DNA of 64,000 nucleotides from Pseudomonas tritici. Its GTDB lineage: Bacteria > Pseudomonadota > Gammaproteobacteria > Pseudomonadales > Pseudomonadaceae. Shown here piece by piece: positions 6,383 to 27,987 of this stretch. Both the position numbers and the translations under genes were made by a program. How positions within the stretch are numbered: the stretch's first letter is position 1; each line of letters starts with the position of its first letter. The stretch is from positions 3,348,001 through 3,412,000 of the forward strand of contig NZ_CP077084.1 of NCBI RefSeq assembly GCF_014268275.3. The letters are read 5' to 3'. Under the pieces are notes generated by a model. The model was not told the origin of the DNA. It did not search any database and worked only from the letters and a program-made list of their open reading frames with translations.

Positions 6383-6399
6383 GTGTTTGGGCCTTTTGG

Positions 6400-8170: not shown

Positions 8171-9127
8171 TTAGAGTTCTTTTACTATTCTTAAAACAAG
8201 TGCGTCGCCCATGGCTTTGTTACGCCCATACGTGTCGTGCGTGTACGTTAGATTGACAGGAATGCTGTTTAAAAATAAATAGCGCGCTGCAAGGCCCACT
8301 CTGATGTTCTCGTACCGGTTACCATCCAACTGGTCTTTGACGAACTGATCCGCCTGTTCGTCGTCAACTTTATCATCGGTAAACTGGTAGGAGCCGACGA
8401 CAGACGTTGCTACAGAAAACTTTGGAGTAACGTTATAGGCGGTTGCAACTTCCAAGTGAGCCATTTGGCCTGATGTGTAAGAGGCCCCGGTTGGGTTGTA
8501 GTAGGTCACTAACCCGTCACGGTTTTTAAAATTCAGCTCGTACGACGCATGGATCGAAATGTCTCCTCGTCCCTGTGGGTCGAACCAGTTGTAGTAGAAT
8601 TGCGGATTCCAGCTCCAGTGGTTGGTTCCGAGATTGACATCACTGCGTCTGTCATACTCTCCTGTAGGAGCTGTAAACGTAGTGCCAAAACCGACGTTGG
8701 CATTGCCGACTTTCCAGGCTAATCCGAACGGATCGATGGCGAGGTCCGCAAAGCCTGTGTTAGTGGAGCTGTTCGAGCCGTTTTTAACCGTTGTGCTGAC
8801 GATGGTCGGAAATATTTCAAATGCCGTCCAGGTGGATCCCAGAATCCCAGTATTTGGGAGGAATTTTAAGGCGAATACATTGTACTCTGAGTGAAGTTTG
8901 GTGTTGGGCGCTGCGTCTTTACCGTCGGGGCCGTTGATTCGGGTTGAATTATAAACGCCGGTATAGTTTACAAGCCACGTACCGCCAGGTGGAGGAAGGT
9001 AGAAATGGCTCATTCCGTCAAGGCCAAAGGCAGCAGCTCCAGTAGAACCACCGTTTTCAGCAGAATAGCTGAAATTTGAAATACCTATCAAACTTGCAGT
9101 GACCAGAAACTTCGAAACGTTTTTCAT
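8171..9127 (-). CDS. Outer-membrane channel of the MetA-pathway (SphA/phenol meta-degradation) family
   Basis: 318-aa protein with a signal peptide (MKNVSKFLVTASLIGISNFSYSA) and a beta-barrel-like mature part. It contains the pattern GFADLAIDPFGLAWK...GTTFTAPTGEYD typical of the phenol meta-degradation/SphA family (PF13557-like). Members sit in aromatic-degradation operons and are thought to form outer-membrane uptake channels. The gene is divergent from an AraC regulator and a catabolic operon on the other strand, so it may import the substrate of that pathway. Confidence 0.82.
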   Translation of the reverse strand: MKNVSKFLVTASLIGISNFSYSAENGGSTGAAAFGLDGMSHFYLPPPGGTWLVNYTGVYNSTRINGPDGKDAAPNTKLHSEYNVFALKFLPNTGILGSTWTAFEIFPTIVSTTVKNGSNSSTNTGFADLAIDPFGLAWKVGNANVGFGTTFTAPTGEYDRRSDVNLGTNHWSWNPQFYYNWFDPQGRGDISIHASYELNFKNRDGLVTYYNPTGASYTSGQMAHLEVATAYNVTPKFSVATSVVGSYQFTDDKVDDEQADQFVKDQLDGNRYENIRVGLAARYLFLNSIPVNLTYTHDTYGRNKAMGDALVLRIVKEL

Positions 9128-9915: not shown

Positions 9916-10815
9916 ATGAGTTCTTCAACATTTTCCCCTTGCGTGAAACGCGGATTAATAACCACGGACTTCAAAGACGACCGCGCAGACTACCGCCCCT
10001 TCACAGAAACCCCTTGGCAGGTTGCTTATGATTATGGGGAGATTTTTTATTGCACGGCTTCCAAGAAGGAAGAGCATCTCGAGCTCGCGCATCATATGAT
10101 TGGCGTCGAGTTAGCGCCCGGCATAGTCAGAACGAGACTGGACTCGGGTAGCTGGTCAAGCGATATCATGCTATCGGGGGCTCTTTACTACGTTGCCGCG
10201 GGATCGACTATCCATGTCAAGAAAGAGCAGCCTATTGATTTTGTATTGGCGACCATTTCACCGGAGTGCGCCGATCAAATGTTTCGAGAGGCTGGGTTAA
10301 ATGGGCCCGCGCCGAGCATGGCATTCAACATGGTTGACCCTGGTGTGCATTTGAAAGCTCGCGCACTTCGTCAGATGTTGCTCTGCCAGGATGAAGAGGT
10401 AGGCTCGTTTGCGTCTGATTTTGTAAAGTATGCCTTCAGGCAGATCGTCAAGTCTCACCATGGTGACCAGCGCTCTGTGAGGTATCAATTGGCCCCCCAT
10501 CAGGTTCGTACTGCACTCGAATTTATAGAAGAAAATTTATCGTCAACATTATCGGTTGAGAAAGTTGCTCAAGATGCGTTGGGTATAAGCAGTTTCTACT
10601 TTGCTCATGCCTTCACTGAGATGCTTGGGTGTTCGCCGCATAAGTATATTATGGATCGGCGGCTTTCGAAGGCTCACGAGCTTATATTGAGCTCAGTCTC
10701 TTCGCTGGCTGATATATCTTACCGGGTTGGGTTTTCCAGTCAGGCCCATATGACCAGTACTTTCAGTAAGCGTTTTGGTGTTACGCCGGGGCAGTTGCGG
10801 CAGCCTGCTATTTGA
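9916..10815 (+). CDS. AraC-family transcriptional regulator
   Basis: 299-aa regulator. The N-terminal half is a cupin-like sensing region. The C-terminal third holds two helix-turn-helix motifs (LSVEKVAQDALGISSFYFAHAF and SLADISYRVGFSSQAHMTSTF) and the F-G-V-T-P-G-Q-L-R end of AraC proteins. GGGAGG lies before the ATG. It is placed between the divergent channel gene and the LLM/amidohydrolase operon, so it probably controls them; this is inferred from position. It has its own strong terminator. Confidence 0.85.
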   Translation: MSSSTFSPCVKRGLITTDFKDDRADYRPFTETPWQVAYDYGEIFYCTASKKEEHLELAHHMIGVELAPGIVRTRLDSGSWSSDIMLSGALYYVAAGSTIHVKKEQPIDFVLATISPECADQMFREAGLNGPAPSMAFNMVDPGVHLKARALRQMLLCQDEEVGSFASDFVKYAFRQIVKSHHGDQRSVRYQLAPHQVRTALEFIEENLSSTLSVEKVAQDALGISSFYFAHAFTEMLGCSPHKYIMDRRLSKAHELILSSVSSLADISYRVGFSSQAHMTSTFSKRFGVTPGQLRQPAI

Positions 10816-10921
10816 AGCGTGACGGCATGACTAACCCTGCTTGAAGGTGCAGGCGGCGCTAACGGCCTATGATGTTTAGTAGGTCGGGGCGCCTATAAGC
10901 AGACACTCAGTAGTTGCTGTA

Positions 10922-10965
10922 AAGCAGGCGCGCTCTGGCAACCCAGAGCGCGCCTGCTTATTTTT
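10922..10965 (+). terminator. Strong rho-independent terminator after the AraC gene
   Basis: A 17-bp GC-rich stem (AAGCAGGCGCGCTCTGG with its exact complement at 10943-10959) and a 4-base loop, followed by TATTTTT. It separates the regulator from the downstream catabolic genes, which therefore need their own promoter in 10970-11296. Confidence 0.92.
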
Positions 10966-11296
10966 AATCTTTAGAATTGCTCTCGATACATTCTTGCTTC
11001 TACAACTTGTGCGATAGGCCGTTGGTCATTGCATTTACTCAGCTATTGCTTTTTTTTAGAAAGTAGTGACAAGCGGCGCTGCCGCTCCGAGTTCCACACC
11101 GCCTGGACGATTTCCCCCCGTTCGTCCAAGCACGAATAGGCCGTGTGGCAATCATCTGAAAGGGATTAAAAGTAATCACTCTACCGCAGGATTTTGAAAG
11201 GCTTCTTCTTCCTCCGTCGTTAGTCTTGTCAAGCGAGATCAGTACATTATCACAAGAAATTTTGCAATTAGTCGCTGAGGCGAGAAGAGAGATCTT
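10966..11296. promoter_or_regulatory. Probable promoter region of the LLM/amidohydrolase operon
   Basis: About 330 bp between the terminator and the first catabolic gene. No gene is evident and no promoter boxes can be assigned with confidence. By position it must contain the operon promoter and any binding site of the upstream AraC protein. Confidence 0.4.
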
Positions 11297-12427
11297 ATGA
11301 CCAACGAGCTGCCCGTTACCCAGAATCCAATGTGGGGTCCCAACCGATTGAAGCTTGGTGTCTTCGGCATCAACGGAGGCGCTGCCTTTACGAACCATCC
11401 TGATCGCTTCGTACCTACTTGGGATAATAATCTTCGTGTTGCCAAGATGGCTGATCGCTTGGGTATCGAGGCGCTTGTTTCAGCATCGCGGTGGAAAGCT
11501 TTCGCGAAAGACGGCCACTACTCCGGCGATCTATACGAAACGTTCACATGGGCAGCTGCCGCTGCGGCGGTGACCGAACGCATCTGTGTAATGAGTACCG
11601 TTCACCTGTCGGTTATGCATCCGATCATCGCGGCTAAGTGCTCTGCCACAGTGGACCTCATTTCGAAAGGCCGGCATGGCCTCAATCTCGTGTGCGGCTG
11701 GTATCGCGAAGAGATGGAAATGTTCGGTGACGCGATGTACGGGCACGATGACCGCTACGGTTTGGCCGACGAATGGGTCCAGACCTTCGACCGGCTTTGG
11801 GTAGAGAAGGAAGGCTTCGATTTCGAGGGGAAATTCTACAATCTAAAGCAGGCAATCGTTCAGCCAAAATCGCCGCATCCGCGCCCAGTCCTGATGAATG
11901 CGGGTGGCTCCGATCGGGGGCGAGAGTTCGCGGCGAAAAACTGCGATGTCGCCTTCATCATTCCACAGGACCCAAGACCTGCGTCTCTGAAGAAGCAGGT
12001 CGATCACTATCGTGATTTCGCACGTGAACAATATGGCAAAGAGATCCAGGTCTGGATGTCCAGCTATGTGGTGCAGCGCGACAGCGTTGAAGAAGCTCGT
12101 GCCTATGTTGAGGACTACGTGGTCACGCAGGGCGACGACGAAGGCGTTGACGCTTTCATCGCTAACAATATCGGGAACGCAAAGACCATGCCTGAGGGCG
12201 TGATGGAAAAAATGAAATTTGCCATAGCGGCGGGATACGGTGGCTATCCACTGTTGGGTACGGCGCAGGACATTGCTGCGACGCTTTCCTCAATCTCAGA
12301 CGCCGGTGTGGATGGTGTGCTGTTGACATGGTTGGACTATGAGGGAGGTCTGAGCAATTTCGGCGAGACAGTGTTGCCGTTGCTTGAACAGCAAGGACTG
12401 CGCAGCCCGGTTGAAGATTTCGACTGA
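11297..12427 (+). CDS. LLM-class (luciferase-like) FMNH2-dependent monooxygenase, RutA-like
   Basis: 376-aa bacterial-luciferase-family TIM barrel. Segments line up with RutA, the uracil-ring-opening monooxygenase, as I recall it: the MSTVHLSVMHP strand, ISKGRHGLNLVCGW (RutA: ISGGRFGVNLVTGW), MNAGGSDRGREFAAKNCD, and a C-terminal GVLLTWLDYEGGLSNFGE (RutA: GVLLTFDDFLSGIETFGE). Such enzymes use reduced FMN supplied by a flavin reductase, and one is encoded two genes downstream. GAGAAGAGAG precedes the ATG. First gene of a four-gene unit with an amidohydrolase, flavin reductase and nitroreductase. Substrate unknown; an N-heterocyclic amide or imide is the likeliest class. Confidence 0.8.
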   Translation: MTNELPVTQNPMWGPNRLKLGVFGINGGAAFTNHPDRFVPTWDNNLRVAKMADRLGIEALVSASRWKAFAKDGHYSGDLYETFTWAAAAAAVTERICVMSTVHLSVMHPIIAAKCSATVDLISKGRHGLNLVCGWYREEMEMFGDAMYGHDDRYGLADEWVQTFDRLWVEKEGFDFEGKFYNLKQAIVQPKSPHPRPVLMNAGGSDRGREFAAKNCDVAFIIPQDPRPASLKKQVDHYRDFAREQYGKEIQVWMSSYVVQRDSVEEARAYVEDYVVTQGDDEGVDAFIANNIGNAKTMPEGVMEKMKFAIAAGYGGYPLLGTAQDIAATLSSISDAGVDGVLLTWLDYEGGLSNFGETVLPLLEQQGLRSPVEDFD

Positions 12428-12651
12428 GGCTAGGCCTCATTCCGGGTGCTCTTTTAGCTGTGACGTACCTATCTTGGTTGCCCTTGGCCGTATGTACCCG
12501 GACCTCGTAATGGGGCGCGCCTGGAATTCTATCTGCCATAGCACGGGTACATAACCTATGCATTCGGTTTGCACGTCCGCTGTAATTCTGGCTGTTGCGA
12601 TGAATGAACCAAGAATGCCTCGATAAAGAATAACAAGTCAGGTGGCATAAA

Positions 12652-14046
12652 ATGCAAAGCGCAAACGTTGAACAGGTCGACCTTCTGATCTCGGCCGGAT
12701 GTATCGTTACCGTCGATCAGCAGCGACAAATCATCCGCGATGGCGCAATCGCTATCAAGGGAGGCGACATCGTCGCGATTGGGCCGCGTGACGCGATTGA
12801 GCGGGCGTATGTGGGGCATAAAACTATTCATGCCCCTCAGGGACTCATCACCCCAGGTCTCATCGATGCTCACAATCACCCAATCGATTATCTAATCAAG
12901 GGGATGGTTGACGATACGCCGCAAATTGTCCGACTCCGTGATCGGGTCATTCCTTACGAGGACCAGTTAACGGAGGAGCAAGCCTATGCCTCCTCCGCAG
13001 CAACCTTCGTCGAGATGATCCGCCAGGGTACGACATGCTTCGTGGACGGTGCGGGCCCGATGCCCCACGCGGTTGCTCGTGCGGCACTGGATCTGGGCAT
13101 GCGAGGCATTGTTGCGCGCAAACTCGCGGATGTAGCGGGACCTTTTGGTGGACTGATCCAGGACACTGATGAGGCGATCGCTCTCGCCAACGAGACGGTC
13201 GAACAGTTCAACGGGGCCGGTGACGGGCTTCTGCGCGCGTGCTACGACCTCGACATGCCTGCGGTTGTGAGTGATCGCCTGGCCGAGATGGTGTTAACCC
13301 AGGCTCTCGAGAGGGGAGTCGGTATTGTGGCTCACCTCATCGGGCGGCGCGCGCCTCCGGGGGAGCCTGAGGTGGTAGCCAATGCAGACATTGCGCGGCT
13401 GCATCGGCTGGGTCTATTAGGACCGCACTTGCTGCTGGCACACATCGGATGGATCCCAGCCAATGATGTGGCCCTATTAGCTGAGACTAAAACAAACGTC
13501 GTCCATTGCCCGGCATCAAGCCTCGTTGGCGGGAACGGCTGGGTCGCGCACGGTGTGATCCCCGACCTGGTTGCTGGCGGGGTCAATGTTGCACTCGGCA
13601 CCGACGCAGCAATCATTGCTCGAACGCTCGACATGGTCCGCATGATGAATCTGGCGTCATGTGTCCATAAGGATGCCAGACGAGATCCATTGATAATGGA
13701 CCCCTACACCGTATTTGAAATGGCGACCATACGTGGGGCCAAGGCGGTGCATTGGGATGACCGGATTGGATCTTTGGAGGTTGGAAAAGCTGCCGATCTT
13801 GCGATCTTCGACACAAGCTCCCCGCACTGGTGGCCCGAGCCACTGGGTAATCCTGTGCCGGACCTGGTTTACGGCGGCACCGGGCGCGACGCCCGTACAG
13901 TGGTGATCAACGGCAAAGTGGTGATGGAAGACGGCAATCTCATAGGGGTCGACGTGGCGTCGATCGCTTCCGCAGTACAGAGTGCTGCCGCTGCCTGTTA
14001 CGCGAGGCTAGGTGCAGTACCTTCCGGGGTTTGGCCCGTACGATGA
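12652..14046 (+). CDS. Amidohydrolase-superfamily metalloenzyme (TRZ/ATZ, aminohydrolase type)
   Basis: 464-aa metal-dependent hydrolase of the group that includes AtzA/AtzB, TrzN, cytosine deaminase and 8-oxoguanine deaminase. Metal-binding candidates are His74 and His76 (DAHNH), His228 (GIVAHLIG), His264 (LLAHIGW) and the catalytic Asp318 (LGTDAA). The motif SSLVGGNGW and the C-terminal GSLEVGKAADLAIFD are typical. These enzymes remove amino, chloro or alkylamino groups from triazine, pyrimidine or purine-like rings. Set after a RutA-like monooxygenase, it could convert an aminated heterocycle to its oxo form before ring opening. The substrate is not predictable. Confidence 0.8.
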   Translation: MQSANVEQVDLLISAGCIVTVDQQRQIIRDGAIAIKGGDIVAIGPRDAIERAYVGHKTIHAPQGLITPGLIDAHNHPIDYLIKGMVDDTPQIVRLRDRVIPYEDQLTEEQAYASSAATFVEMIRQGTTCFVDGAGPMPHAVARAALDLGMRGIVARKLADVAGPFGGLIQDTDEAIALANETVEQFNGAGDGLLRACYDLDMPAVVSDRLAEMVLTQALERGVGIVAHLIGRRAPPGEPEVVANADIARLHRLGLLGPHLLLAHIGWIPANDVALLAETKTNVVHCPASSLVGGNGWVAHGVIPDLVAGGVNVALGTDAAIIARTLDMVRMMNLASCVHKDARRDPLIMDPYTVFEMATIRGAKAVHWDDRIGSLEVGKAADLAIFDTSSPHWWPEPLGNPVPDLVYGGTGRDARTVVINGKVVMEDGNLIGVDVASIASAVQSAAAACYARLGAVPSGVWPVR

Positions 14047-14130
14047 ACAATGCTCTCAAGCAGATTTTTCGCTAGAGCAACCGCGATCAACGCGGCTCAA
14101 CACCTGAATTGAACCAGGCAGGATTTTATT

Positions 14131-14628
14131 ATGAACGAGAATACCGTGCACGCTGACTTCAAACTGGCGATGCGACGCCTGGCGGCGACGATCGCTGTGG
14201 TGACATCCGGTACTGAGGATGACTGGACGGGAATGGCGGCCACCGCCGTCACTTCCGTGACTGCCGATCCGCCGACGCTATTGGTGGCGGTAAACCGGAA
14301 CGCCAGCTTGTCTCCGGTCATGAAGCGCGAAGGCCGTTTCTGCGTAAATTTACTGTCAGAACGGCACGCGGATATCGTTGGGGTTTTTAGTGGACAGAAA
14401 AAAGGTCGCGAGCGATTCGAGACGGGCGATTGGAATCCTTCCGATGAAGGTTTGCCGATTTTGAGCGATGCGAACGCAGCCCTCGTCTGCACGATATCGA
14501 ATACTTTTGAGGTCGGCACTCATACACTCTTTATCGGTGAAGTAACGGCCGTTTATTGCCATTCGAAAATAGACCCTCTTATCTGGGTCGACGGAGGCCT
14601 CGCTCGCACGGAGGCTTTAAGTGTGTAA
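14131..14628 (+). CDS. Flavin reductase (RutF/HpaC family)
   Basis: 165-aa NAD(P)H:flavin reductase of the HpaC/NtaB/RutF type. It has the family segments LRRLAATIAVVTSG-like (here AMRRLAATIAVVTSG), AATAVTSVTADPP and FCVNLLSERH, and the C-terminal H-x-L-F-I-G-E strand. It would supply reduced FMN to the LLM monooxygenase encoded upstream. It lies 84 bp after the amidohydrolase gene. A direct substrate-reducing role is possible but less likely. Confidence 0.85.
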   Translation: MNENTVHADFKLAMRRLAATIAVVTSGTEDDWTGMAATAVTSVTADPPTLLVAVNRNASLSPVMKREGRFCVNLLSERHADIVGVFSGQKKGRERFETGDWNPSDEGLPILSDANAALVCTISNTFEVGTHTLFIGEVTAVYCHSKIDPLIWVDGGLARTEALSV

Positions 14629-14831
14629 CCCATCACCTATCGCACTTAGGTTAAAGGCCGCGCTCTCATAATTCCCAGTTATAGTACGGTCGATCTGCTG
14701 AAGTGAGTGTTAAAGAAACGTGCCCCTGGGGTTGGTTAATATTAAACCGGCTAAATTGTGTCCGTCGCCCTTTGGTTTCACTTAACAAAGTGGCGACGAT
14801 GACGCGCTCGCCGAGTATGAAAGGAACAGTT

Positions 14832-15443
14832 ATGAATACTAGAGTTGCAAACCATCCCATTTTGCCGCTGATCTTGGATCGCTGGTCTTCCCGAGCATAC
14901 GACACTACAGCCTCCGTCACGCGGGGAGAGCTGGCAATACTGTTCGAGGCGGCTCGATGGGCACCTTCATCGTTCAATATCCAGCCATGGCGCTTCGTTT
15001 TCGCATTGCGAGGTGACGCGGGGTGGGAAGGGATGCTTGACCTGTTGATACCCTTCAACAAGGGCTGGGCTGAAGCAGCGGGTGCTTTGATCTGCATATG
15101 CTCGGAAGTAGATACGCCGACCAAAACACCTGGGCAACGGCAACCGTCCTACAGCCACAGCTTTGACACAGGAGCGGCGTGGGCGATGTTTGCACTGCAA
15201 GCCTCCAGCATGGGCCTCGGGACTCATGCAATGACAGGGTTTAACATTGACGGCGCCAGAGATGTTCTGCAGTTGCCAGACAATGTTCGGCCGGAAGCGG
15301 TCATTGCAGTTGGCCGCCCGGGATCTGCTGCCGAGCTGCCAGAAGGACTTCGCGAGCGTGATGTCCCTAGCGATAGGCATCGAATTGATGCATTTGTATA
15401 CGAGCACACTTACGGAGCTTCCGCGTTTTTAGGTGGTGATTAG
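14832..15443 (+). CDS. Nitroreductase-family FMN oxidoreductase
   Basis: 203 aa from the ATG at 14832, which has AAAGGAA six bases upstream; a longer frame starting at a GTG (14703) lacks a ribosome site. The SSRAYD N-terminus, the FMN phosphate contact ARWAPSSFNIQPWRF and the ALQASSMGLGTHAMTGF segment identify the nitroreductase family. In rut operons a member of this family (RutE) reduces malonic semialdehyde after ring opening. A similar carbonyl- or nitro-reducing role is possible here, though the sequence does not closely resemble RutE. Confidence 0.8.
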   Translation: MNTRVANHPILPLILDRWSSRAYDTTASVTRGELAILFEAARWAPSSFNIQPWRFVFALRGDAGWEGMLDLLIPFNKGWAEAAGALICICSEVDTPTKTPGQRQPSYSHSFDTGAAWAMFALQASSMGLGTHAMTGFNIDGARDVLQLPDNVRPEAVIAVGRPGSAAELPEGLRERDVPSDRHRIDAFVYEHTYGASAFLGGD

Positions 15444-15844
15444 ATCAGCCAAAATTAAATACGGCCTTTTGTTGTGAATGCCTGTGAATAAGAGAGGAGC
15501 GATCACTTGCGAACCAAGTGATCGATATATCGAGTGCTTCGACGAGAACGGCGACCGCGCCGACGCGCTGGAACTGCGCCGCTGATCCAGTATTGGGCAT
15601 TGTCGAGCGCTTGAACCTCATGCAGATAGGCTACTCGGTCCGCAACGCGGTCGGCACGGTGCAGAGTGGATGAAGTATCCAGCGCGAACCACCGCTGCTC
15701 TGGTTCTACAGCTGCATCGCGATCTCATAGTGAGTTGTTCAGGCAGGCTTACCAGCGAGTAAGCGCGCCATATGGGGTTGTTGCGTAGGATGGCCTCAGG
15801 TTACATCCTTCGAAGGCGTAGCCCTCGCACGATGCGGGGTGACT
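15444..15844. other. Intergenic stretch with degraded sequence
   Basis: About 400 bp after the nitroreductase. Short broken frames of high GC suggest gene remnants, but I could not assign a family. No terminator with a convincing T-run was seen. Confidence 0.4.
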
Positions 15845-16207
15845 ATTTCTTTAGTCCGCTACAACGGCTGCTCGGCGTCTGCACCTTGCCATCTGCGCCC
15901 AACGTTTAGGCTTTGTGTGCTGGATCGCGCACGGTGAGTGCAATGGCCAGCGCCACCGGTACGCCGGGCAGACCGAAGAAAGAACGTTGCTTGCCATGCC
16001 CACGTTGCTCCGAGCAAAGGCAAAGTAATTATGTCCACGTGCGTGACCAGCCCAATCACGGAGTCGCCGAGCAGAAAGGCAGTCCGTTTATCGATGAATA
16101 ATCCACGCGAATAGACCGCTACGGCGCGACCCAGTTAATGGCGCTCGAACATCTCGCTCATCATGGAGTAGGGGCGGGCGACAGTGCGGCTTCGTCGATT
16201 GCGATCA
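15845..16207 (-). pseudogene. MFS transporter relic
   Basis: Reading the minus strand with frameshifts gives a clear major-facilitator core: EAALSPAPYSMMSEMF, then GRAVAVYSRGLF, DSVIGLVTHVDI, WAWQATFF, then FFGLPGVPVALAIALTVRDPAHKA. A one-base loss lies near 16175, a stop lies after MFERH, and another stop follows VRDPAHKA. Only about 120 codons remain. The piece is the middle of an anion- or aromatic-acid-type MFS carrier and may once have served the upstream catabolic cluster. Confidence 0.75.
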
Positions 16208-16442
16208 GCCTTTCCATAGTCTCATGGCTATGAGAAGGGCTGTTTATAACTATTGGAAAGTTAGCATAAGATTATTAAGAATCAGAAACTACAAAAATAT
16301 TAGCAGTGGTTTGCCTACGATGATAAAAAAAATTAGCAGATCGTTATGTGGTTTAAGGCTTCGCTTTAAGCTTGTCAGATGTAATCTCATGCGTGAAAAA
16401 ATAATAAAATAGCTATCGCTAAGGTTTCTGGAGATTTATCTT

Positions 16443-17408
16443 ATGCAAACATGCACGTCCATGCTGGCTGTTAAAGTAGCGCGTCGTAAGGTGGAGACTG
16501 ATCGGGTTATTTCCCTTGAACTGGTAAGTCTTACAGGCGAGCCTTTACCGCCATTTGAGGCGGGTGCACATATTGAAGTCAATGTCGGAGCAGGCGTTGT
16601 TCGGCATTACTCAATTTGCAATGACCCTCGAAATCAAGATCACTATACACTGGGTATATTGCGCGAAATGCCTTCTCGGGGAGGGTCGGAAACAATACAC
16701 AATGAATTCGATGTTGGCACTGTCGTTAACATAAGTGCACCTAGAAACAATTTTAGGTTAAACGAATCCGCTGGGCACTCGATACTGTTTGGCGGAGGCA
16801 TTGGAATAACACCATTGATTGCTATGGCGTGGCATTTATACGCCAACGGCGGATCATTTGAGCTGCATTATTGTGCGCGTGGTCGTGTTAACGCCGCTTT
16901 TTATGATCAGCTTCAGCAAACTCCTTTTTCTGCTAATGTCATTGGTCATTTTGACGAGGGTGATCCGGAAAAATTTTGTGATTTTTCCGTAGTTTTGAAT
17001 AAGCCTAATTCAGATCGCCATGTTTATATTTGTGGACCTGCCGGATTTATGGAAGCGGTTGCCAAGACGGCAAAGATTCAAGGGTGGATGAGCGAAAATA
17101 TTCATATTGAACATTTTGGTGCTCAGATAGATATGACGGGAGCCGAATTTACCGTACGCACCAAAAAAACAAATTTAACGCTTCAGGTACCTCCAGATAA
17201 ATCTATTGCACAGGTTTTAATCGATGCAGGTGTTGATGTTCCCATCTCTTGTGAACAGGGTGTTTGCGGTACTTGTCTTACTGGAGTGTTAGAGGGGTCG
17301 CCAGATCATCGGGATTTATTTATGACGGATGCTGAAAGGTCAAACAATGACCAAATGACGATATGTTGTTCTCGTTCAAATTCTAATTTTCTGGTCCTGG
17401 ATATTTAA
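16443..17408 (+). CDS. Reductase of a VanAB-type Rieske oxygenase (FNR plus C-terminal 2Fe-2S)
   Basis: 321-aa phthalate-dioxygenase-reductase/VanB-type electron carrier. The flavin-binding RHYSICN motif is at 54-60 and the nucleotide-binding FGGGIGITP at 116-124. A CGPAGFM motif begins at 197, and a C-terminal plant-type ferredoxin has Cys270, Cys275, Cys278 and Cys308. It would pass NADH electrons to the Rieske oxygenase encoded next. Base composition is clearly more AT-rich than the flanking catabolic genes, suggesting separate acquisition of this pair. CTGGAG precedes the ATG. Confidence 0.88.
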   Translation: MQTCTSMLAVKVARRKVETDRVISLELVSLTGEPLPPFEAGAHIEVNVGAGVVRHYSICNDPRNQDHYTLGILREMPSRGGSETIHNEFDVGTVVNISAPRNNFRLNESAGHSILFGGGIGITPLIAMAWHLYANGGSFELHYCARGRVNAAFYDQLQQTPFSANVIGHFDEGDPEKFCDFSVVLNKPNSDRHVYICGPAGFMEAVAKTAKIQGWMSENIHIEHFGAQIDMTGAEFTVRTKKTNLTLQVPPDKSIAQVLIDAGVDVPISCEQGVCGTCLTGVLEGSPDHRDLFMTDAERSNNDQMTICCSRSNSNFLVLDI

Positions 17409-17493
17409 AGCCAGCCTATTTGAAACGGTGTCATTACCTAATGAGTTGCGTGAATTATTTTTTTGCGTATTTCATGCAAAAAAGGAGAGGTCC

Positions 17494-18567
17494 ATGATAT
17501 TTCTTTACAATGCTTGGTACCCTGCGGGTTGGGCAGACGATGTAGAAGTTGGCAAGCTAGTTGCAAAAACATTTCTGAATCAGCGTGTGGTAATGTTCAG
17601 AGACAGCCAAGGTGCTATTAAAGGCCTGCAAGATCGCTGTCCGCACCGGTTCGTCCCGCTGCATCTAGGTGAGCTTAAAGGCGATACAATTCAATGTGCT
17701 TACCACGGGCTTGTGTTTGATTGTACGGGTGCGTGTGTTCTGAACCCTCATGGAAACGGTGCCATTCCGAAGGCTGCGAGGGTTCGAAGTTATCCTATGG
17801 CCGAACTGTACGGACTGATATGGATCTGGATGGGAGATGAAGCCAAAGCAGATCCCCAGCTCATATGTGACTTCAGTGAAATGGATCCTGTCAGGAAATA
17901 TGTGGGTAAGAGTTATCTTTCTGTCAACGCTAATTACGTTTTGGAAAACGATAACATTATGGACCTTAGCCATATCGAGTTTCTGCACAAGGCCTCGTTG
18001 GGTAGCAGTAAGGTCTCTGAAGGGAAAATAGATGTTGTTCAAGTGGGAGATACGGTTCATTCCAAAAGATCAACTGTTGGCGAAAAGCTGACTGCAGCTT
18101 TGGAAAAGATGCGTGGTATCCCAGCAGGTCAGGCGGTGGATCGGTGGCTGGATGTTCGCTGGAATGCTCCAGCAAGCATGTTGCTGACAACGGGCTATAC
18201 CTTTACAGGAAGACCAAAGGAGGAAGGGCGAGAGCTATTCGTTACTCACCTTTTTACGCCAGAGACGGAGTCAACTACTCATTATTGGTTTGGTATCGCG
18301 TTCCCTCGCTCCATGGGGCCGGAAGCGGAGAAACTGGCTGAACAGAACGTCCAGTGGTTGATACAACCTTTCTCAGAAGAGGACATGCCTATGTTGGAGG
18401 CTCAACAGCAGGAGATCGGTGATCGAGATTTCTGGTCACTCAACCCCGTACTTTTACCCAGCGACGGCGGGGCAGTACGAGCTCGCCGTGTATTGGACCG
18501 CCTCATAAAAGAGGAGCAAGAGGCTTTGATGGCCTCCGTCGCGCAATCCGGAGCAGGGGTTAGATAG
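17494..18567 (+). CDS. VanA-like Rieske non-heme iron oxygenase
   Basis: 357 aa from the ATG at 17494, chosen because of the strong AAAGGAGAGG just upstream; the longer frame (17428) lacks one. The Rieske cluster is Cys49-x-His51 and Cys68-x2-His71. The mononuclear iron site lies in NIMDLSHIEFLH (Asp157, His160, His165). Length and layout match VanA, which demethylates vanillate, and related ring hydroxylases or O/N-demethylases. The partner reductase is 85 bp upstream. The substrate is unknown. Its place beside a 3-hydroxyanthranilate operon makes a methoxylated, N-alkylated or unsubstituted aminobenzoate an attractive guess. Confidence 0.87.
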   Translation: MIFLYNAWYPAGWADDVEVGKLVAKTFLNQRVVMFRDSQGAIKGLQDRCPHRFVPLHLGELKGDTIQCAYHGLVFDCTGACVLNPHGNGAIPKAARVRSYPMAELYGLIWIWMGDEAKADPQLICDFSEMDPVRKYVGKSYLSVNANYVLENDNIMDLSHIEFLHKASLGSSKVSEGKIDVVQVGDTVHSKRSTVGEKLTAALEKMRGIPAGQAVDRWLDVRWNAPASMLLTTGYTFTGRPKEEGRELFVTHLFTPETESTTHYWFGIAFPRSMGPEAEKLAEQNVQWLIQPFSEEDMPMLEAQQQEIGDRDFWSLNPVLLPSDGGAVRARRVLDRLIKEEQEALMASVAQSGAGVR

Positions 18568-18650
18568 CCGTTACTTCTTCCTGAATAAAGTCAGCGCTTT
18601 TTTGGCTTCAAAAAAGTTATCGAAAACCGCTGGCTGCTTCAAGCCTCCGT

Positions 18651-19574: not shown

Positions 19575-19838
19575 CTTATTCGTTGTTGCCTGCTATGGCC
19601 CGGTGCTTTATTCGATATTAACCTGTTTGAGGTTACTCACAATTGATTTGGACGACAACCGCAGTGCGTGCCCTAAAACTATCGGTACGCCGGTTTTTTC
19701 TGACGCTGGTCCAAAGCGTGGGCGGGGCGTGAAATTGCAACCGTTGGTCGATGCTGCTTCCGCCGTGCTCTGGATGATTTGCGACATCCTGAATGGCCGA
19801 AAAAGCAAGATGGTCTGTGAAATATTTCGAGGCTTTAT

Positions 19839-20780
19839 ATGAAATTCACAACGATTTCTATTGCACGCAAGCTCAAATTTTATCAGTTAGTTGTGTTCGA
19901 CCAAGTGCTGGAGAGTGGCTCTTTAGTTCGTGCGGCTCAGACACTTGGCCTGACTCAGCCAGCGGTTACCAAAATCATCCATGATTTGGAAGAATATCTC
20001 GGTGCGCCTTTGCTGATCCGTGGCAATCGCGGGGTAACGGCTACGGAGTTGGGAGAGTTGGTGGTCCGTCGGGCCAAATCGCTGTTGGCGGAATTGCGTT
20101 CGCTCACGGACGAGGTGAATGCGTTTCAGGAGGGCATGTCCGGTCATGTCATGGTCGGCACGCTGATTTCAGCATCGACCTCCTTGCTGCCTCGCGCCAT
20201 GCAGTTGCTCAAGCAACAGGCTCCAGGCGTTTTAGTGTCTCTGCGAGTGGGGCAGATGGATCAGCTGTTTCCGGCCCTTGCCGTGGGTGAAGTTGATTTG
20301 GTCGTAGGACGGGTTCCCGACGATTGGTGCTGGCGTAACGAGACGCCCAGGCTTGATGTGGATGTTCTCTATGCCGAAGAGTTGAGTATTGTCGCTGGCG
20401 CCGATCATCCGTTGCATACCGGGGCACCGGTCAGGCTAGGAGATCTGCACCCATTCCCATGGGTGTTGCCGCCCCAGGACTCACTGTTACGCCGTACTGC
20501 AGACAAACTGTTCTTCGACGCTGCTTTACCTACCCCAGGCAACGTTGTCGAGTCGTTATCGATTCTGACCAACATTTCCCTGATGCAGGACCAGCAAACG
20601 GTAGCCCTGATGCCCTATGGAGCCGCGCAACAATTCATCGACGTGGGATTGCTCAAGGCCTTCGACTTGGGTGCACCGATGCAGTTTGGTGATATTGGCT
20701 GCTTTTTTTCCAATGCTCGGGCTCTTGGTCCTGCTGCGCGGCTGTTTCGTGAGTGTCTCTATGAGGCGCGTGCGGAGTAA
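19839..20780 (+). CDS. LysR-type regulator, probable regulator of the 3-hydroxyanthranilate operon
   Basis: 313-aa LysR protein with the helix-turn-helix in the first 70 residues (ESGSLVRAAQTLGLTQPAVTKIIHDLEEYLG) and an effector domain of the GbpR/PcaQ-like kind. It is 136 bp upstream of the dehydrogenase gene and in the same direction. In the nba cluster of P. fluorescens KU-7, as I recall it, a LysR gene (nbaR) lies at the other end, so equivalence to nbaR is not assured. GAGG lies just upstream of the ATG. Confidence 0.8.
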   Translation: MKFTTISIARKLKFYQLVVFDQVLESGSLVRAAQTLGLTQPAVTKIIHDLEEYLGAPLLIRGNRGVTATELGELVVRRAKSLLAELRSLTDEVNAFQEGMSGHVMVGTLISASTSLLPRAMQLLKQQAPGVLVSLRVGQMDQLFPALAVGEVDLVVGRVPDDWCWRNETPRLDVDVLYAEELSIVAGADHPLHTGAPVRLGDLHPFPWVLPPQDSLLRRTADKLFFDAALPTPGNVVESLSILTNISLMQDQQTVALMPYGAAQQFIDVGLLKAFDLGAPMQFGDIGCFFSNARALGPAARLFRECLYEARAE

Positions 20781-20916: not shown

Positions 20917-22383
20917 GTGTCTGAACCCTTGCAGTTGCTGCGTAATTATATCTCGGGTGAATTTGTCGCAAGCGACCAGACCTTCCCTAATATTTCGCCC
21001 GTCGACGGCCGGACTCTGAGCCAGGTTTGCGAGGCTGACAGCGTTTTGGTAGAGCGTGCTGTGGCGGCAGCGAAAGCCGCCCAGTCGGGGCCTTGGGCTA
21101 ATTTCAGCGCACGCGAACGAGCGCAGATGCTGCACAAGATTGCCGATGGCATCGAGCGCCGCTTTGATGATTTTGTCGCCGCCGAAGTGGCTGACACCGG
21201 TAGGCCTGTGCACCAGGCTCGCAGTCTCGATATCGCCCGTGGTGTCCATAACTTTCGAACCTTTGCCGAGCTGATCAATCAAGCTGGCAGTGAATGTTTT
21301 GAGATGCGTACGGGCGACGGCTCGGACGTGTTCAGCTTCTCGGTGCGTAAGCCTCATGGTGTGGTGGCGATCATTTCGCCTTGGAACCTGCCGATGTTGT
21401 TGATGACCTGGAAAGTTGCGCCGGCGCTGGCCTGTGGCAATTCGGTGGTGGTCAAGCCATCGGAAGACTCGCCATCCACCGCCACGTTACTTGCCGAAGT
21501 CATGCACGAAGTTGGTCTGCCAGCCGGCGTGTTTAACCTGGTGCATGGTTTCGGCCCAAACTCGGCGGGGGAGCTTCTAACGCGTAATCCAGACGTCGAT
21601 GCGATCACCTTCACCGGCGAATCACGCACCGGTGCAACCATCATGAAAGTCGCTGCCGAAGGCGTGCGTGACGTCTCGTTCGAACTCGGCGGAAAAAACG
21701 CCGCCGTGGTGTTCGCCGATTGCGATTTCGACGCGGCCGTAGCGGGTGTTCTGCGCTCCAGCTTCACCAATTCCGGGCAGGTATGTCTGTGCTCGGAACG
21801 GGTTTATGTCGAGCGCCCGATCTACGAGCGATTCGTCGCCGCCATGAAGGCCGGTGCCGAGGCGCTGAAGATCGGTTACCCGGACGAAGACGGGGTCAAT
21901 ATGGGCTCGTTGATCTCACATAAACACCGCGACAAAGTCCTCGGTTATTTCGATCTGGCTCTTGCCGAAGGCGCGACCGTGGTGACGGGTGGCGGCGTAC
22001 CTACCTTTGGCGATGAGCGTGATAACGGTGCCTATGTGCAGCCGACTATCTGGACGGGCTTGAGCGACGGTGCCCGTTGCGTGCGTGAGGAAGTCTTCGG
22101 TCCTGTGTGCCACATCGCGCCGTTCGACAGCGACGACGAAGTGGTGCGTCGAGTCAACGACTGTGCGTACGGTCTGGCTACTGCCGTGTGGACTCGCGAC
22201 TTGAAGCGCGCGCACACCGTCACGCGTCAATTCCGCGTCGGTATGGTCTGGGTCAATACCTGGTTCCTGCGCGACTTGCGCACGCCGTTTGGTGGCACGC
22301 GACTATCCGGTATCGGCCGTGAGGGTGGTCGGCACTCCCTGGATTTCTATTCCGAAATCACCACCATTTGTATCAATCCATGA
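20917..22383 (+). CDS. nbaE: 2-aminomuconate 6-semialdehyde dehydrogenase
   Basis: 488-aa NAD-dependent aldehyde dehydrogenase. Catalytic Cys290 lies in NSGQVC, the general base Glu256 in FELGGKN, and the oxyanion Asn157 in SPWNLP. The neighbours specify the substrate: 3-hydroxyanthranilate ring-cleavage product, after decarboxylation, gives 2-aminomuconate semialdehyde, oxidised here to 2-aminomuconate. Related enzymes act on 2-hydroxymuconate semialdehyde (DmpC/XylG). A GTG start is used, with CGGAGG five bases upstream. First gene of an eight-gene operon with overlapping junctions. Confidence 0.88.
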
Positions 22384-22403
22384 TCCGTCTGGAGTCATCG
22401 ACC

Positions 22404-23213
22404 ATGCATGAAGACCTTATTGAAGCCGCAAGTCGGCTGCGCCAGGCCGAACGCAGCGGGCAACCTTGCGCGCCAGTGCGCGACTTGATTGCCAGTGCGC
22501 TCGCTGCCGACCCGACGGCTGATCCTGTCGCGCTCGCCTATGCCGTGCAGCAGTACAACACCCAAGCGGCAATCGACGCTGGCATGCGGCCGGTCGGCCG
22601 CAAAATCGGCCTCACCTCGCGCGCCGTGCAGCAACAGCTTGGCGTGAATCAGCCGGACTTCGGTTTGCTGTTCGCCAGCATGTCCCGTGGCGACGACCAA
22701 CCCATCGCCTGGGCTGACACCGCACAGCCAAAAGTTGAAGCGGAAATTGCCCTGGTGCTGGAACACGACCTGTGCCACGAACAGCACACCATGGCTGATT
22801 TGATCCGCGCCACCGCATTTGCGTTGCCGGCCATCGAGATCGTCGGCAGCCGCATCGCCAACTGGGACATCCGCTTGGTCGACACCATCGCCGACAACGC
22901 GTCTTCGGGCCTGTTCGTGCTTGGCAGTCGCCCAGTGCAACTGGACAAGCTCGATCTGGTGCGTTGCGGCATGAGCATGACGCTCGCGGGCGAACCGGTT
23001 TCGGTCGGTGCTGGCGCAGCCTGTATGGGCAACCCGCTCAACGCTGCGTTGTGGCTCGCCGACACCATGACGCGTTTGGGCGTTCCGCTGCGCGCCGGGG
23101 ACATTCTGCTGACTGGCGCACTCGGGCCGATGGTCGCTGCGCGGCCGGGCAATGTGTTCACCGCGCATATCCAGGGCCTGGGCAGCGTCACTGCTGCTTT
23201 CGACCATCAATAA
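22404..23213 (+). CDS. nbaH: 2-hydroxypenta-2,4-dienoate (2-oxopent-4-enoate) hydratase
   Basis: 269 aa from the ATG at 22404, preceded by CTGGAG; an upstream ATG overlapping the previous stop is also in frame. It resembles MhpD in length and in sequence ([38 protein letters not shown]). The enzyme adds water to 2-oxopent-4-enoate, giving 4-hydroxy-2-oxovalerate for the aldolase. Metal ligand candidates are the Glu residues in VEAEIAL. Confidence 0.88.
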
Positions 23214-24169
23214 TGAGCGAGAACCGCAGCGTGAACAAAAAACTTAAAGTCGCGATCATTGGTTCCGGCAACATTGGCACCGACCTGATGATCAAGATCC
23301 TGCGTAACGCTAGGTACCTGGAAATGGCGGTGATGGTCGGTATCGACCCGGCCTCCGATGGTCTGGCCCGCGCGTCGCGGCTAGGCGTGGCGGTGACCCA
23401 TGAGGGCGTCGAAGGCTTGACCCGGCTGGACGTGTTCAAAGACATCGACTTCGTGTTCGATGCCACTTCGGCCGGTGCCCACGTCAAGAACGATGCCTTC
23501 CTGCGCTCGATCAAACCCGGCATCCGACTGATCGACCTGACCCCGGCAGCCATAGGTCCGTACTGCGTGCCGGTGGTTAACCTGGAACAGAACCTGGATC
23601 AGCTCAACGTCAACATGGTCACCTGCGGCGGCCAGGCGACGATTCCGATGGTCGCTGCCGTGTCCCGCGTGGCCAAGGTGCACTACGCTGAAATTGTCGC
23701 CTCGATCGCCAGTAAATCCGCCGGTCCCGGCACCCGCGCCAATATCGACGAGTTTACCGAAACCACTTCAAAAGCCATCGAAGTGATTGGCGGCGCCACC
23801 AAGGGCAAGGCGATCATCGTGATGAACCCGGCCGAGCCGCCGCTGATGATGCGCGACACGGTTTTCGTGCTTTCCGAAGCGGCTGACCAGGCATTGGTCG
23901 AGTCTTCCATCATCGAAATGGCCGCTGCAGTGCACGCCTATGTGCCGGGCTATCGCCTCAAGCAGCAGGTGCAGTTCGATGTGATTTCTGAAGGCGCGCC
24001 GCTGCATATTCCGGGGCTGGGCACCTTCTCGGGCTTGAAGACCTCGATTTTCCTCGAAGTCGAAGGCGCCGCCCACTACCTGCCAGCCTACGCTGGAAAC
24101 CTCGACATCATGACGTCTGCTGCCTTGGCCACCGCCGAGCGCATGGCACAGTCGATTTTGAGCGCCTGA
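23213..24169 (+). CDS. nbaJ: Acetaldehyde dehydrogenase (CoA-acylating)
   Basis: 318-aa enzyme of the MhpF/DmpF/BphJ family that turns acetaldehyde into acetyl-CoA with NAD and CoA. The Rossmann motif GSGNIG is at 17-22, and the catalytic Cys138 lies in VTCGGQA. Its start overlaps the hydratase stop (TAATG), so the genes are translationally coupled. It normally forms a channelling complex with the aldolase encoded next. Confidence 0.93.
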
Positions 24170-24179
24170 GGAGACGATC

Positions 24180-25211
24180 ATGGACATCAATAAAAAGCTC
24201 TACATCAGTGATGTTACCCTGCGCGACGGCAGCCACGCCATTCGCCACCAGTATTCGATCCAGAACGTCCAGGATATTGCCCGGGCGTTGGACGCGGCCC
24301 GCGTCGACAGCATCGAAGTGGCTCACGGCGATGGTCTTCAAGGTTCAAGCTTCAACTACGGCTTTGCCGCGCACACCGATCTTGAGTGGATCGAAGCGGC
24401 TGCCGACGTGATCAGTCATGCCAAGATCGCCACCTTGCTGTTGCCCGGTATAGGTTCTGTACATGACCTGAAGGCAGCCTACAACGCGGGTGCCCGGGTG
24501 GTGCGCATCGCCACTCATTGCACCGAAGCGGATGTGTCGAAACAGCACATCGAATATGCGCGCGAATTGGGTATGGATACCGTCGGTTTCCTGATGATGA
24601 GTCATATGATCGCCCCCGAGCAGTTGGCCGCTCAGGCCAAGCTGATGGAAAGCTACGGCGCCACCTGTGTGTACATGGCCGACTCCGGTGGGGCGATGAG
24701 CATGCAGGACGTACGCGAGCGCTTCCGTGCTTTCAAAGCCGTGCTCAAGCCAGAAACCGAAACGGGCATGCACGCCCACCACAACCTGAGCCTTGGAGTG
24801 GCCAACTCTATCACTGCGGTGGAGGAGGGCTGTGACCGTATCGATGCCAGCCTGGCCGGCATGGGCGCCGGTGCGGGTAACGCACCGCTGGAAGTGTTTA
24901 TCGCCGCGGCCGAACGCATGGGCTGGAACCATGGCACCGACCTCTACACCTTGATGGATGCTGCCGACGACATCGTCCGCCCCCTGCAGGATCGTCCTGT
25001 GCGGGTTGACCGTGAAACCCTGGCCTTGGGTTATGCCGGGGTCTACTCCAGCTTCCTGCGTCACGCCGAAATCGCTGCGGCCAAGTATGGCCTTAAGACC
25101 CTCGACATCCTGGTCGAGCTGGGTAAGCGCCGGATGATCGGCGGCCAGGAAGACATGATCGTTGACGTCGCCCTCGATTTGCTGTCAGCCCGCAAGGAAC
25201 AACGCCCATGA
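24180..25211 (+). CDS. nbaI: 4-hydroxy-2-oxovalerate aldolase
   Basis: 343-aa metal-dependent class II aldolase of the DmpG/MhpE/BphI family, cleaving 4-hydroxy-2-oxovalerate to pyruvate and acetaldehyde. The active-site [13 protein letters not shown] lies at 13-25, and the metal-binding H-x-H in GMHAHHN is present. The C-terminal domain that docks to the acylating dehydrogenase is complete. It begins 10 bp after the dehydrogenase gene. Confidence 0.94.
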
Positions 25212-25992
25212 ATACCCATATCGCGCATATCGCCAAGGCCCTTGATCACGCTGCACGAAAAGCCGAAGCACTGGCGCAGTTCAGCACGCAAACGCCATTC
25301 TCCCTTGAGGAGGCGTACCAGATTCAACGCGCCTCGATGCAGCATCGCTATGATGCCGGCGAACGCATGATCGGGCTTAAACTGGGCTTCACCAGCCGCG
25401 CCAAGATGATTCAAATGGGTGTTGACAGCTTAATCTGGGGCTGGCTCACCGATGCGATGCTCGAAGAGGATGGTGGCCTTGTCGATCTGAGTCGGTTCAT
25501 TCATCCGCGAGCCGAACCTGAGGTGTGCTTCCTCACGCGCAAGACCATCGACCGGCCCCTGACACAACTCGAGGCCATCGATTATCTGGAAGCGGTGGCA
25601 CCCGCCATCGAGATTATTGATTCGCGGTATCAGGCGTTCAAATTCACCTTGGAAGATGTGGTTGCCGACAACTGTTCGTCGTCCGGCCTGGTGGTGGGTG
25701 CATGGTCCCGTGACTTCGCGAACCTGGCCAACGCAGGGGTGCTGATGCGTATCAATGGTCGGGTGGTCCAGGCCGGTTCGACGGCGGCGATTCTCGGCCA
25801 TCCGTTGCGAGGCCTGGTGCAGGCTTCGCAGTTGCTGGCCAAGGCAGAAATTTCTTTGCCTGCCGGCAGCCTTATCATGGCCGGTGCCGCAACCGCCGCC
25901 GAGGCCCTGAGCCCTGGGGCCCATGTCAGTGTCGAAATTGCCGGTTTCGGTGAGTGCGGCTTCAATGTTCCGACAGTGCAAGGGGAGGCGCA

Positions 25993-25996
<4 letters not shown>
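25208..25996 (+). CDS. nbaG: 4-oxalocrotonate (2-oxo-3-hexenedioate) decarboxylase
   Basis: 262 aa, paralogous to the hydratase upstream (both in the fumarylacetoacetase-like hydratase/decarboxylase family). It has the decarboxylase-type segments [17 protein letters not shown] and RAEPEVCFL and [10 protein letters not shown]. It decarboxylates the 2-oxohexenedioate formed after deamination to 2-oxopent-4-enoate. It overlaps the aldolase stop by four bases (ATGA). Confidence 0.88.

Positions 25997-27987
<1,991 letters not shown>

What the first reader, a model, noticed from the sequence alone, without database searches (positions are those of the whole stretch)
11297..15443. Rut-like cluster led by a deaminase or dechlorinase-type amidohydrolase
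Four genes in a row encode a RutA-like LLM monooxygenase, a TRZ/ATZ-type amidohydrolase, a RutF-like flavin reductase and a nitroreductase-family protein. The rut pathway combines the first, third and fourth types to open uracil. Here the isochorismatase, RidA and other Rut proteins are absent and a metal hydrolase with an intact metal set (His74, His76, His228, His264, Asp318) takes their place. This would suit a pathway that first deaminates or dehalogenates an aminated heterocycle and then opens it. An AraC regulator, an outer-membrane channel and a decayed MFS carrier flank it. I do not recognise this combination as a described pathway.
Basis: partly seen in the sequence, partly recalled or inferred. 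Interest (0 to 1): 0.75.

Follow-up and report, generated by a model that had tools for sequence, protein, structure and literature searches.

The report
Cluster for opening fused nitrogen rings
A Pseudomonas-like bacterium carries a rare set of genes, with related sets in Duganella, Variovorax, Sphingomonas and, partly decayed, Streptomyces, that likely frees 3-hydroxyanthranilate from a still unidentified nitrogen-ring compound, beside genes predicted to break that product down for food; it would be an undescribed degradation route.

Summary
In detail: four open genes encode a RutA-side LLM monooxygenase, a TRZ/ATZ-type amidohydrolase, a RutF-like flavin reductase and a nitroreductase-family protein. 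The interpretation needs two changes. First, the hydrolase keeps its metal set, but the Glu of the aligned deaminases is absent (0 of 121 sequences), which weakens "deaminase or dechlorinase"; NatAM, a benzoxazole-forming amidohydrolase that binds 3-hydroxyanthranilate, has the same zinc set and also lacks that Glu. Second, the cluster is only the front of a locus: a Rieske pair and an nba-type 3-hydroxyanthranilate meta-cleavage set follow. In Duganella, Variovorax and Sphingomonas, with other gene orders, the 3-hydroxyanthranilate dioxygenase lies on the same contig; in two Streptomyces it is a broken remnant there; Burkholderia has none. Isatin-hydrolase genes are linked too.

Best explanation: RutA-type oxidative amide cleavage plus one hydrolysis releases 3-hydroxyanthranilate from a benzo-fused lactam (oxindole- or quinazolinone-like). 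Genes and linkage are shown; both reactions and the substrate are inferred. No described operon with this gene set was listed in my ten answered literature searches (open-access papers only). Known families in a new, recurring combination.

The parts
8171..9127 (-). Outer-membrane protein (Phenol_MetA_deg, PF13557), probable uptake channel of the cluster
   Evidence: Pfam 7.8e-39; 67% homolog beside the nitroreductase gene in Burkholderia sp. L27
9916..10815 (+). AraC-family regulator of the cluster
   Evidence: HTH_18 1.6e-20; homologs 65% Burkholderia, 56% Variovorax, 34% Sphingomonas in the same neighbourhoods
11297..12427 (+). LLM flavin-dependent monooxygenase, RutA side of the family, own subfamily
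12652..14046 (+). TRZ/ATZ-fold amidohydrolase without the Glu of the aligned deaminases
14131..14628 (+). RutF/HpaC-like flavin reductase, probable partner of the LLM enzyme
   Evidence: Pfam 1.1e-40; TIGR03615 RutF 128 bits, below cut-off 254.75; 68-78% in Burkholderia, Duganella, Variovorax
14832..15443 (+). Nitroreductase-family FMN oxidoreductase (ORF open from 14703)
   Evidence: Pfam 1.2e-21; 2fre flavin oxidoreductase 1.7e-40; 66-79% in Burkholderia, Duganella, Variovorax
16443..17408 (+). VanB/phthalate-type reductase of the Rieske oxygenase
   Evidence: Fer2 1.1e-12, NAD_binding_1 2.5e-5; 43% homolog beside VanA in Duganella
17428..18567 (+). VanA-type Rieske oxygenase
   Evidence: VanA_C 1.7e-43, Rieske 1.1e-18; dicamba O-demethylase 1.6e-62; only about 34% to the Rieske genes of the other clusters; G+C 46.6%
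19839..20780 (+). LysR regulator, probably of the nba-type genes
   Evidence: Pfam; 48% homolog beside the nba genes in Duganella
20917..22383 (+). Semialdehyde dehydrogenase (nbaE-like)
   Evidence: TIGR03216 864 bits, above cut-off 693
22368..25996 (+). Hydratase, acetaldehyde dehydrogenase, aldolase and oxalocrotonate decarboxylase-like genes (nbaH, J, I, G-like)
   Evidence: Pfam and NCBIfam; the two FAA-type genes are below their NCBIfam cut-offs
25954..26436 (+). RidA-family protein, probable 2-aminomuconate deaminase (nbaF-like)
   Evidence: Ribonuc_L-PSP 3e-25; gene position next to 3-HAO
26429..27001 (+). 3-hydroxyanthranilate 3,4-dioxygenase (3-HAO, nbaC-like)
   Evidence: NF009763 251 bits, cut-off 220; TIGR03037 240 bits, cut-off 146
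26998..27987 (+). ACMS decarboxylase-like amidohydrolase (nbaD-like)
   Evidence: Amidohydro_2 2.3e-31; no NCBIfam family at 1e-15; gene position

Best explanation
The four genes are the front end of a longer catabolic locus and likely free 3-hydroxyanthranilate from a benzo-fused, lactam-type nitrogen ring, which the adjoining nba-type genes are predicted to cleave and degrade. Inferred steps: (1) the VanA/VanB Rieske pair installs or unmasks the hydroxyl next to the ring nitrogen; (2) the LLM enzyme, fed with reduced FMN by the RutF-like reductase, makes a flavin-N5-peroxide in a RutA-type oxygen pocket and cleaves the ring amide; (3) the Glu-less amidohydrolase hydrolyses the remaining C-N bond (urea, amidine or cyclic imidate) at its metal site and releases 3-hydroxyanthranilate; (4) 3-HAO, ACMS decarboxylase, semialdehyde dehydrogenase, deaminase and the lower meta-pathway enzymes take it to pyruvate and acetyl-CoA. 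The nitroreductase-family protein is a second flavin or intermediate reductase. Shown: the genes, their families, conserved residues, and the recurring linkage. Inferred: every reaction and the substrate, most likely oxindole-, isatin- or quinazolinone-like because isatin-hydrolase genes are linked to the same loci.
For: Linkage: full-length 3-HAO homologs lie on the same contig as the amidohydrolase in 5 of 8 genomes (window, P. cedrina, Duganella, Variovorax, Sphingomonas), and broken remnants lie beside it in both Streptomyces. Distances from the hydrolase: about 12 kb in the window, 17 kb Duganella, 10 kb Variovorax, 13 kb Sphingomonas, 1 kb in the Streptomyces, in differing gene orders; an ACMSD homolog (47-48%) is beside the hydrolase in both Streptomyces. 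In Duganella, nba D,C,F,G,I,J,H,E, both reductases, LLM, hydrolase and VanA/VanB form one block of about 22 kb. The Streptomyces and Sphingomonas LLMs sit on branches separate from the Pseudomonas one. The Sphingomonas populi assembly has no kynureninase over cut-off (43.6 of 246.4 bits), so the tryptophan route does not explain its 3-HAO genes. RutA residues needed for activity (T105, N134, V136; PMC7662398 passages) are kept in the 7 core, 6 sister and 10 distant LLM rows tested. Sister LLM genes at 53-58% identity sit beside a RidA-type gene (L016, L017, L021; L017 by Pfam), as RutA occurs with RutC. Hydrolase: same zinc set as NatAM (His75, His77, His253, Asp345, with His290) and NatAM has Ala256 where the deaminases have Glu; NatAM binds 3-hydroxyanthranilate (PMC7204872 parts 1-3). 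Isatin-hydrolase homologs on the LLM contig within 52 kb in 6 of 8 genomes.
Confidence: 0.48

Rival explanations
1. Benzoxazole catabolism: the amidohydrolase works as NatAM in reverse and opens a benzoxazole-4-carboxylate (caboxamycin or nataxazole type) to an acylated 3-hydroxyanthranilate, and the LLM enzyme then cleaves the amide.
For: NatAM has the same zinc ligands, lacks the Glu, and binds 3-hydroxyanthranilate; profile match 1.5e-49; 3-hydroxyanthranilate is the building block of these antibiotics (PMC7204872) and the linked pathway degrades it.
Confidence: 0.15
2. One reading: the hydrolase deaminates or dehalogenates a free heterocycle (pyrimidine, triazine, pyridine) and the LLM enzyme opens it as RutA opens uracil.
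Against: Glu at the HxxE place in 0 of 121 family members; the linked pathway is for 3-hydroxyanthranilate; no RutB- or RutD-type gene in the cluster.
Confidence: 0.13
3. Baeyer-Villiger route: the LLM enzyme oxidises a 7-hydroxyisatin to the isatoic anhydride and the hydrolase opens that to 3-hydroxyanthranilate and CO2.
For: Isatin-hydrolase homologs on the LLM contig within 52 kb in 6 of 8 genomes; two steps fit two enzymes; LLM-type Baeyer-Villiger enzymes are known (recalled).
Against: Isatin hydrolase itself would already open isatin; the RutA-type pocket speaks for amide cleavage; no assay.
Confidence: 0.1
4. Coincidental neighbours: the four-gene cluster degrades an unrelated compound and sits in an island that collects anthranilate-type pathways (antABC, nba, isatin module).
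For: Burkholderia lacks 3-HAO; the Streptomyces copies beside the hydrolase are broken; the isatin module stands alone in two other Pseudomonas genomes; island segments have G+C 46.6-59.4% against 59-63% at eight other loci of the genome.
Against: The same association recurs in five genera with different gene order, including remnants in Streptomyces.
Confidence: 0.14

Closest known systems
Rut pyrimidine pathway (rutABCDEFG, E. coli)
   Same: RutA-type oxygen pocket residues, RutF-like reductase, nitroreductase-family member; would use the same oxidative amide cleavage
   Different: LLM and reductase score below the RutA and RutF curated cut-offs; no RutB or RutD type, and the only RidA gene is in the nba part; a metal hydrolase and an aromatic ring-cleavage pathway instead
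nba/onb pathway for 2-nitrobenzoate via 3-hydroxyanthranilate (Pseudomonas fluorescens KU-7, Cupriavidus ST-14)
   Same: Same lower pathway: 3-HAO, ACMSD-like, dehydrogenase, deaminase, decarboxylase, hydratase, aldolase, acetaldehyde dehydrogenase. KU-7 is recalled; for ST-14 I saw a search listing only (PMC5817917)
   Different: Upstream part is LLM, amidohydrolase and Rieske rather than a 2-nitrobenzoate reductase and mutase (recalled)
NatAM, benzoxazole-forming amidohydrolase of nataxazole biosynthesis (6SJ0-6SJ4)
   Same: Fold, zinc set, missing Glu, 3-hydroxyanthranilate as ligand (PMC7204872 parts 1-3)
   Different: Biosynthetic condensation with an acyl-AMP ligase; here a catabolic context; not the closest relative by score
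Lumichrome catabolism (lum genes, Nocardioides simplex)
   Same: Degrades a fused uracil ring with hydrolases, and uses a Rieske enzyme (PMC12746152 parts 1-2 and passages)
   Different: Ring opened hydrolytically by LumH, LumI, LumM; P450, two-subunit TPP decarboxylase and xanthine oxidase; no LLM ring opener
iad auxin degradation (Variovorax paradoxus CL014)
   Same: Rieske enzyme, and IadI annotated as a kynurenine formamidase, lead to anthranilate (PMC12633357 section 5 and passages)
   Different: No LLM or TRZ hydrolase named in what I read; ends in anthranilate, not 3-hydroxyanthranilate

Membership tests
RutA (pyrimidine monooxygenase) | Score above TIGR03612 cut-off (498 bits) | tested here: not met
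   154 bits; no match of the own genome passes it
RutA (pyrimidine monooxygenase) | O2-pocket residues Thr105, Asn134, Val136, Phe224 and flanking Trp139 | tested here: met
   T101, N130, V132, F220, W135; same in the core, sister and distant LLM rows tested; RutA Leu65 is Val61 here
RutA (pyrimidine monooxygenase) | Cleaves uracil N3-C4 | not testable with these tools
   needs assay
Rut pathway | RutB, RutC, RutD partners in the operon | tested here: not met
   Pfam scans of the 17 main ORFs of 9916-27987; the one RidA-family gene lies in the nba part
SfnG dimethylsulfone monooxygenase | Score above TIGR04021 cut-off and placement with SfnG | tested here: not met
   196 of 383 bits; SfnG clade separate and carries Ala at the Thr101 column
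TRZ/ATZ-type deaminase or chlorohydrolase | Metal ligands HxH, His, Asp and second-shell His | tested here: met
   H74, H76, H228, D318, H264 invariant in A2
TRZ/ATZ-type deaminase or chlorohydrolase | Glu three residues after the third metal His (HxxE; catalytic role recalled) | tested here: not met
   Glu in the 5 of 5 solved chains whose alignments were shown (two of them one protein), in 0 of 121 family members here
NatAM-type condensing amidohydrolase | Zinc set with no Glu at the HxxE place | tested here: met
   window residues against the text on NatAM
NatAM-type condensing amidohydrolase | NatL2-like acyl-AMP ligase partner | tested here: not met
   none among the window ORFs scanned; AMP-binding genes seen only in Duganella and Sphingomonas
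NatAM-type condensing amidohydrolase | Lys315 and Glu321 of the NatAM pocket | not tested
   NatAM was below the five alignments shown
nba-type 3-hydroxyanthranilate pathway | 3-HAO and semialdehyde dehydrogenase above curated cut-offs | tested here: met
   251 of 220, 240 of 146, 864 of 693 bits
nba-type 3-hydroxyanthranilate pathway | ACMS decarboxylase | tested here: inconclusive
   Amidohydro_2 only, no NCBIfam family

The most novel reading that the evidence does not exclude
The superlocus takes apart a two-part indole alkaloid of the tryptanthrin (indoloquinazoline) kind. The LLM enzyme cleaves the quinazolinone amide, the Glu-less hydrolase then splits the amidine into 3-hydroxyanthranilate and isatin; the nba genes burn the first and a linked isatin module (isatin hydrolase, IorAB, aminobenzoyl-CoA-type hydroxylase, gentisate-type dioxygenase, maleamate-type amidase, maleate-type isomerase) burns the second. 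It would be the first genetic route for such alkaloids and a benzo-fused counterpart of the Rut pathway.
Probability: 0.1. Interest if true: 0.82.

Novelty: new variant of a known kind. Interest (0 to 1): 0.6.

Why it matters
If right, RutA-type flavin-N5-peroxide amide cleavage would extend from free pyrimidines to benzo-fused rings, a group that includes plant alkaloids, antibiotics and drugs. It would give a gene set to look for in environmental bacteria, a role for a Glu-less TRZ/ATZ subfamily that sources now often name methylthioadenosine/S-adenosylhomocysteine deaminase, and an explanation for 3-hydroxyanthranilate meta-cleavage genes in a bacterium with no kynureninase over cut-off (Sphingomonas populi).

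Tried and rejected
Literature: ten answered searches on RutA chemistry, quinazoline and 3-hydroxyanthranilate, LLM plus amidohydrolase plus Rieske, phenylurea and molinate hydrolases, quinazolinone biodegradation, Rieske O-demethylases, NatAM, isatin hydrolase, tryptanthrin, 5-hydroxyanthranilate. None listed a described operon of this gene set; only the best-ranked papers of each search were shown and only open-access papers are held. Plasmid searches with LLM and hydrolase gave no record at or above 60% identity. Lumichrome catabolism was considered and rejected (different ring-opening enzymes). Molinate/phenylurea-type urea hydrolase: molinate hydrolase has a Lys and a changed HxH (PMC4407906 passages), so the urea-hydrolase idea is analogy only. 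The CN_hydrolase of Sphingomonas was first taken for an N-carbamoyl hydrolase; its best solved relatives are nitrilases. RNA families in 8000-29000: none at the gathering score. Rieske as an orthologous part of the conserved core: rejected, about 34% identity. Sister LLM genomes without the hydrolase nearby show no 3-HAO linkage: in G305 and G306 the 3-HAO matches are on other contigs, in G303 there is none. Only the best 120 of 588 and of 1267 protein hits were listed; 61 LLM loci came from the genome scan, of which 16 had their ORFs listed and 16 (L009-L024) are shown by protein comparison. That a family is not listed is no exclusion.


Full report
WHAT IS THERE. Each scores below the curated cut-off of its best NCBIfam model, so none can be called by a specific enzyme name. 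The window lies in one contig of 6.24 Mb; the closest public match is Pseudomonas cedrina subsp. fulgida, 99% for the LLM protein, with the same order. The amidohydrolase was found in 1 of 298 genomes sampled from the genus at E <= 1e-100, that of the window itself.

BEYOND THE GIVEN COORDINATES. Left of it lie an outer-membrane protein and an AraC regulator that recur with the cluster in Burkholderia, the regulator also in Variovorax and Sphingomonas. Right of it lie a VanB-type reductase and a VanA-type Rieske oxygenase, two LysR genes, and 20917-27987 with a semialdehyde dehydrogenase, hydratase, acetaldehyde dehydrogenase, aldolase, decarboxylase, RidA-type deaminase, 3-hydroxyanthranilate dioxygenase (3-HAO) and an ACMS-decarboxylase-like gene. 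Dioxygenase and dehydrogenase pass their cut-offs. This is the lower pathway known from 2-nitrobenzoate degraders (recalled).

CONSERVED LINKAGE. In the eight genomes examined (window, P. cedrina, Burkholderia sp. L27, Duganella phyllosphaerae, Variovorax paradoxus DS1452, Sphingomonas populi, Streptomyces ureilyticus, S. torulosus) the hydrolase is present in 8 of 8 and on the LLM contig in 7 of 8; in S. torulosus the two are on different contigs. Full-length 3-HAO is on the hydrolase contig in 5 of 8; both Streptomyces have a broken remnant beside the hydrolase, with intact copies on other contigs; Burkholderia has no match. An ACMSD homolog is beside the hydrolase in both Streptomyces. The order differs between genera, so the association has survived rearrangement. 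A VanA-type Rieske gene is near in Pseudomonas, Duganella, Variovorax and Sphingomonas, but the window's is only about 34% identical to the others, which are 40-50% to each other.

THE SECOND MODULE. In S. ureilyticus a gene beside the hydrolase is an isatin hydrolase by sequence (5nmp, 1.8e-67). Homologs lie on the LLM contig in the window genome (28 kb left of the window, 40 kb from the LLM gene; the only match of that genome at 1e-15), P. cedrina (32 kb), Duganella (52 kb), Variovorax (15 kb, one internal stop), Sphingomonas (21 kb) and S. ureilyticus (2 kb). In S. torulosus an intact copy is on a contig of the same length (37,304) as the LLM contig and a broken one is beside the hydrolase. 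Burkholderia has a 95-residue remnant in the cluster and an intact copy about 540 kb away. In the window genome it heads a set of permease, isatin hydrolase, FAD oxidase-like protein, AraC, IorA, IorB, a salicylyl-CoA-5-hydroxylase-type protein (1288 bits, cut-off 1078), a gentisate or 5-aminosalicylate dioxygenase-like cupin (below cut-offs), FAA hydrolase, nitrilase-family and arylmalonate-decarboxylase-like proteins. Most of the set sits on the same contig as the LLM module in Variovorax, Duganella and Sphingomonas. It is separable: two other Pseudomonas genomes carry it (cupin in 3 of 298 at 1e-150) and neither has the hydrolase at 1e-100; the cupin is absent from Burkholderia and S. ureilyticus at 1e-80. 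My reading, inferred only: isatinate to 2-aminobenzoyl-CoA, 5-hydroxylation, cleavage to maleamylpyruvate, then pyruvate, maleamate, maleate and fumarate.

INTERPRETATION. The shortest scheme that uses the conserved genes is amide cleavage by the LLM enzyme and one hydrolysis to 3-hydroxyanthranilate. Two substrate classes fit on paper, a quinazoline-2,4-dione (fused uracil) and a hydroxylated oxindole or indoloquinazoline; the linked isatin genes favour the second. The kynurenine route is an alternative source of aminobenzoates in most of these genomes (kynureninase over cut-off in 6 of 8, the window genome included) but not in the Sphingomonas populi assembly. The Burkholderia case, the broken Streptomyces dioxygenases and the divergent Rieske gene are the main points against.

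VERDICT. Observation confirmed, interpretation partly supported. Known enzyme families, a recurring combination that I could not find described in the searches run. The mechanism is a prediction until assayed.

Noticed in passing
L130:18863 to L131:14047 (own genome 3318863-3334047, left of the window): Isatin-hydrolase-led gene set with IorAB, salicylyl-CoA-5-hydroxylase-type protein, gentisate-type cupin, FAA hydrolase, nitrilase-family and Amdase/EutA-like genes; a candidate isatin to 5-hydroxyanthranilate to fumarate route, also standing alone in two other Pseudomonas genomes.
   Followed up: partly
window 4805-6553 (-): Argininosuccinate-lyase-like protein (TIGR00838 206 of 279.5 bits) with what looks by eye like a signal peptide after an inner start; 54% homolog in the Variovorax superlocus.
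   Followed up: no
L016, L017, L021: Sister LLM genes sit beside a RidA-type gene, in L017 also an NMT1-type ABC transporter: a possible second Rut-like route.
   Followed up: partly
window 16443-18567: The Rieske pair has G+C 46.6%, below the 51-59% of the neighbouring segments and 59-63% at eight other loci of the genome: probably a separate acquisition.
   Followed up: no
window 28250-28849 (-): Weak phage-integrase-like protein (below the Pfam cut-off) at the right edge of the nba genes, possible island boundary.
   Followed up: no
L012 13972-15183 and L013 3507-4688: RibBA (riboflavin synthesis) genes inside the Variovorax and Sphingomonas clusters, perhaps to supply FMN to the LLM enzyme.
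   Followed up: no
window 486-3418: Anthranilate dioxygenase antABC above cut-offs at the left edge, so the island holds a third anthranilate-type route.
   Followed up: no
L092:17580-17956 (-): 3-HAO remnant in S. ureilyticus whose N-terminal part is missing; transposase genes lie elsewhere in the same contig.
   Followed up: partly
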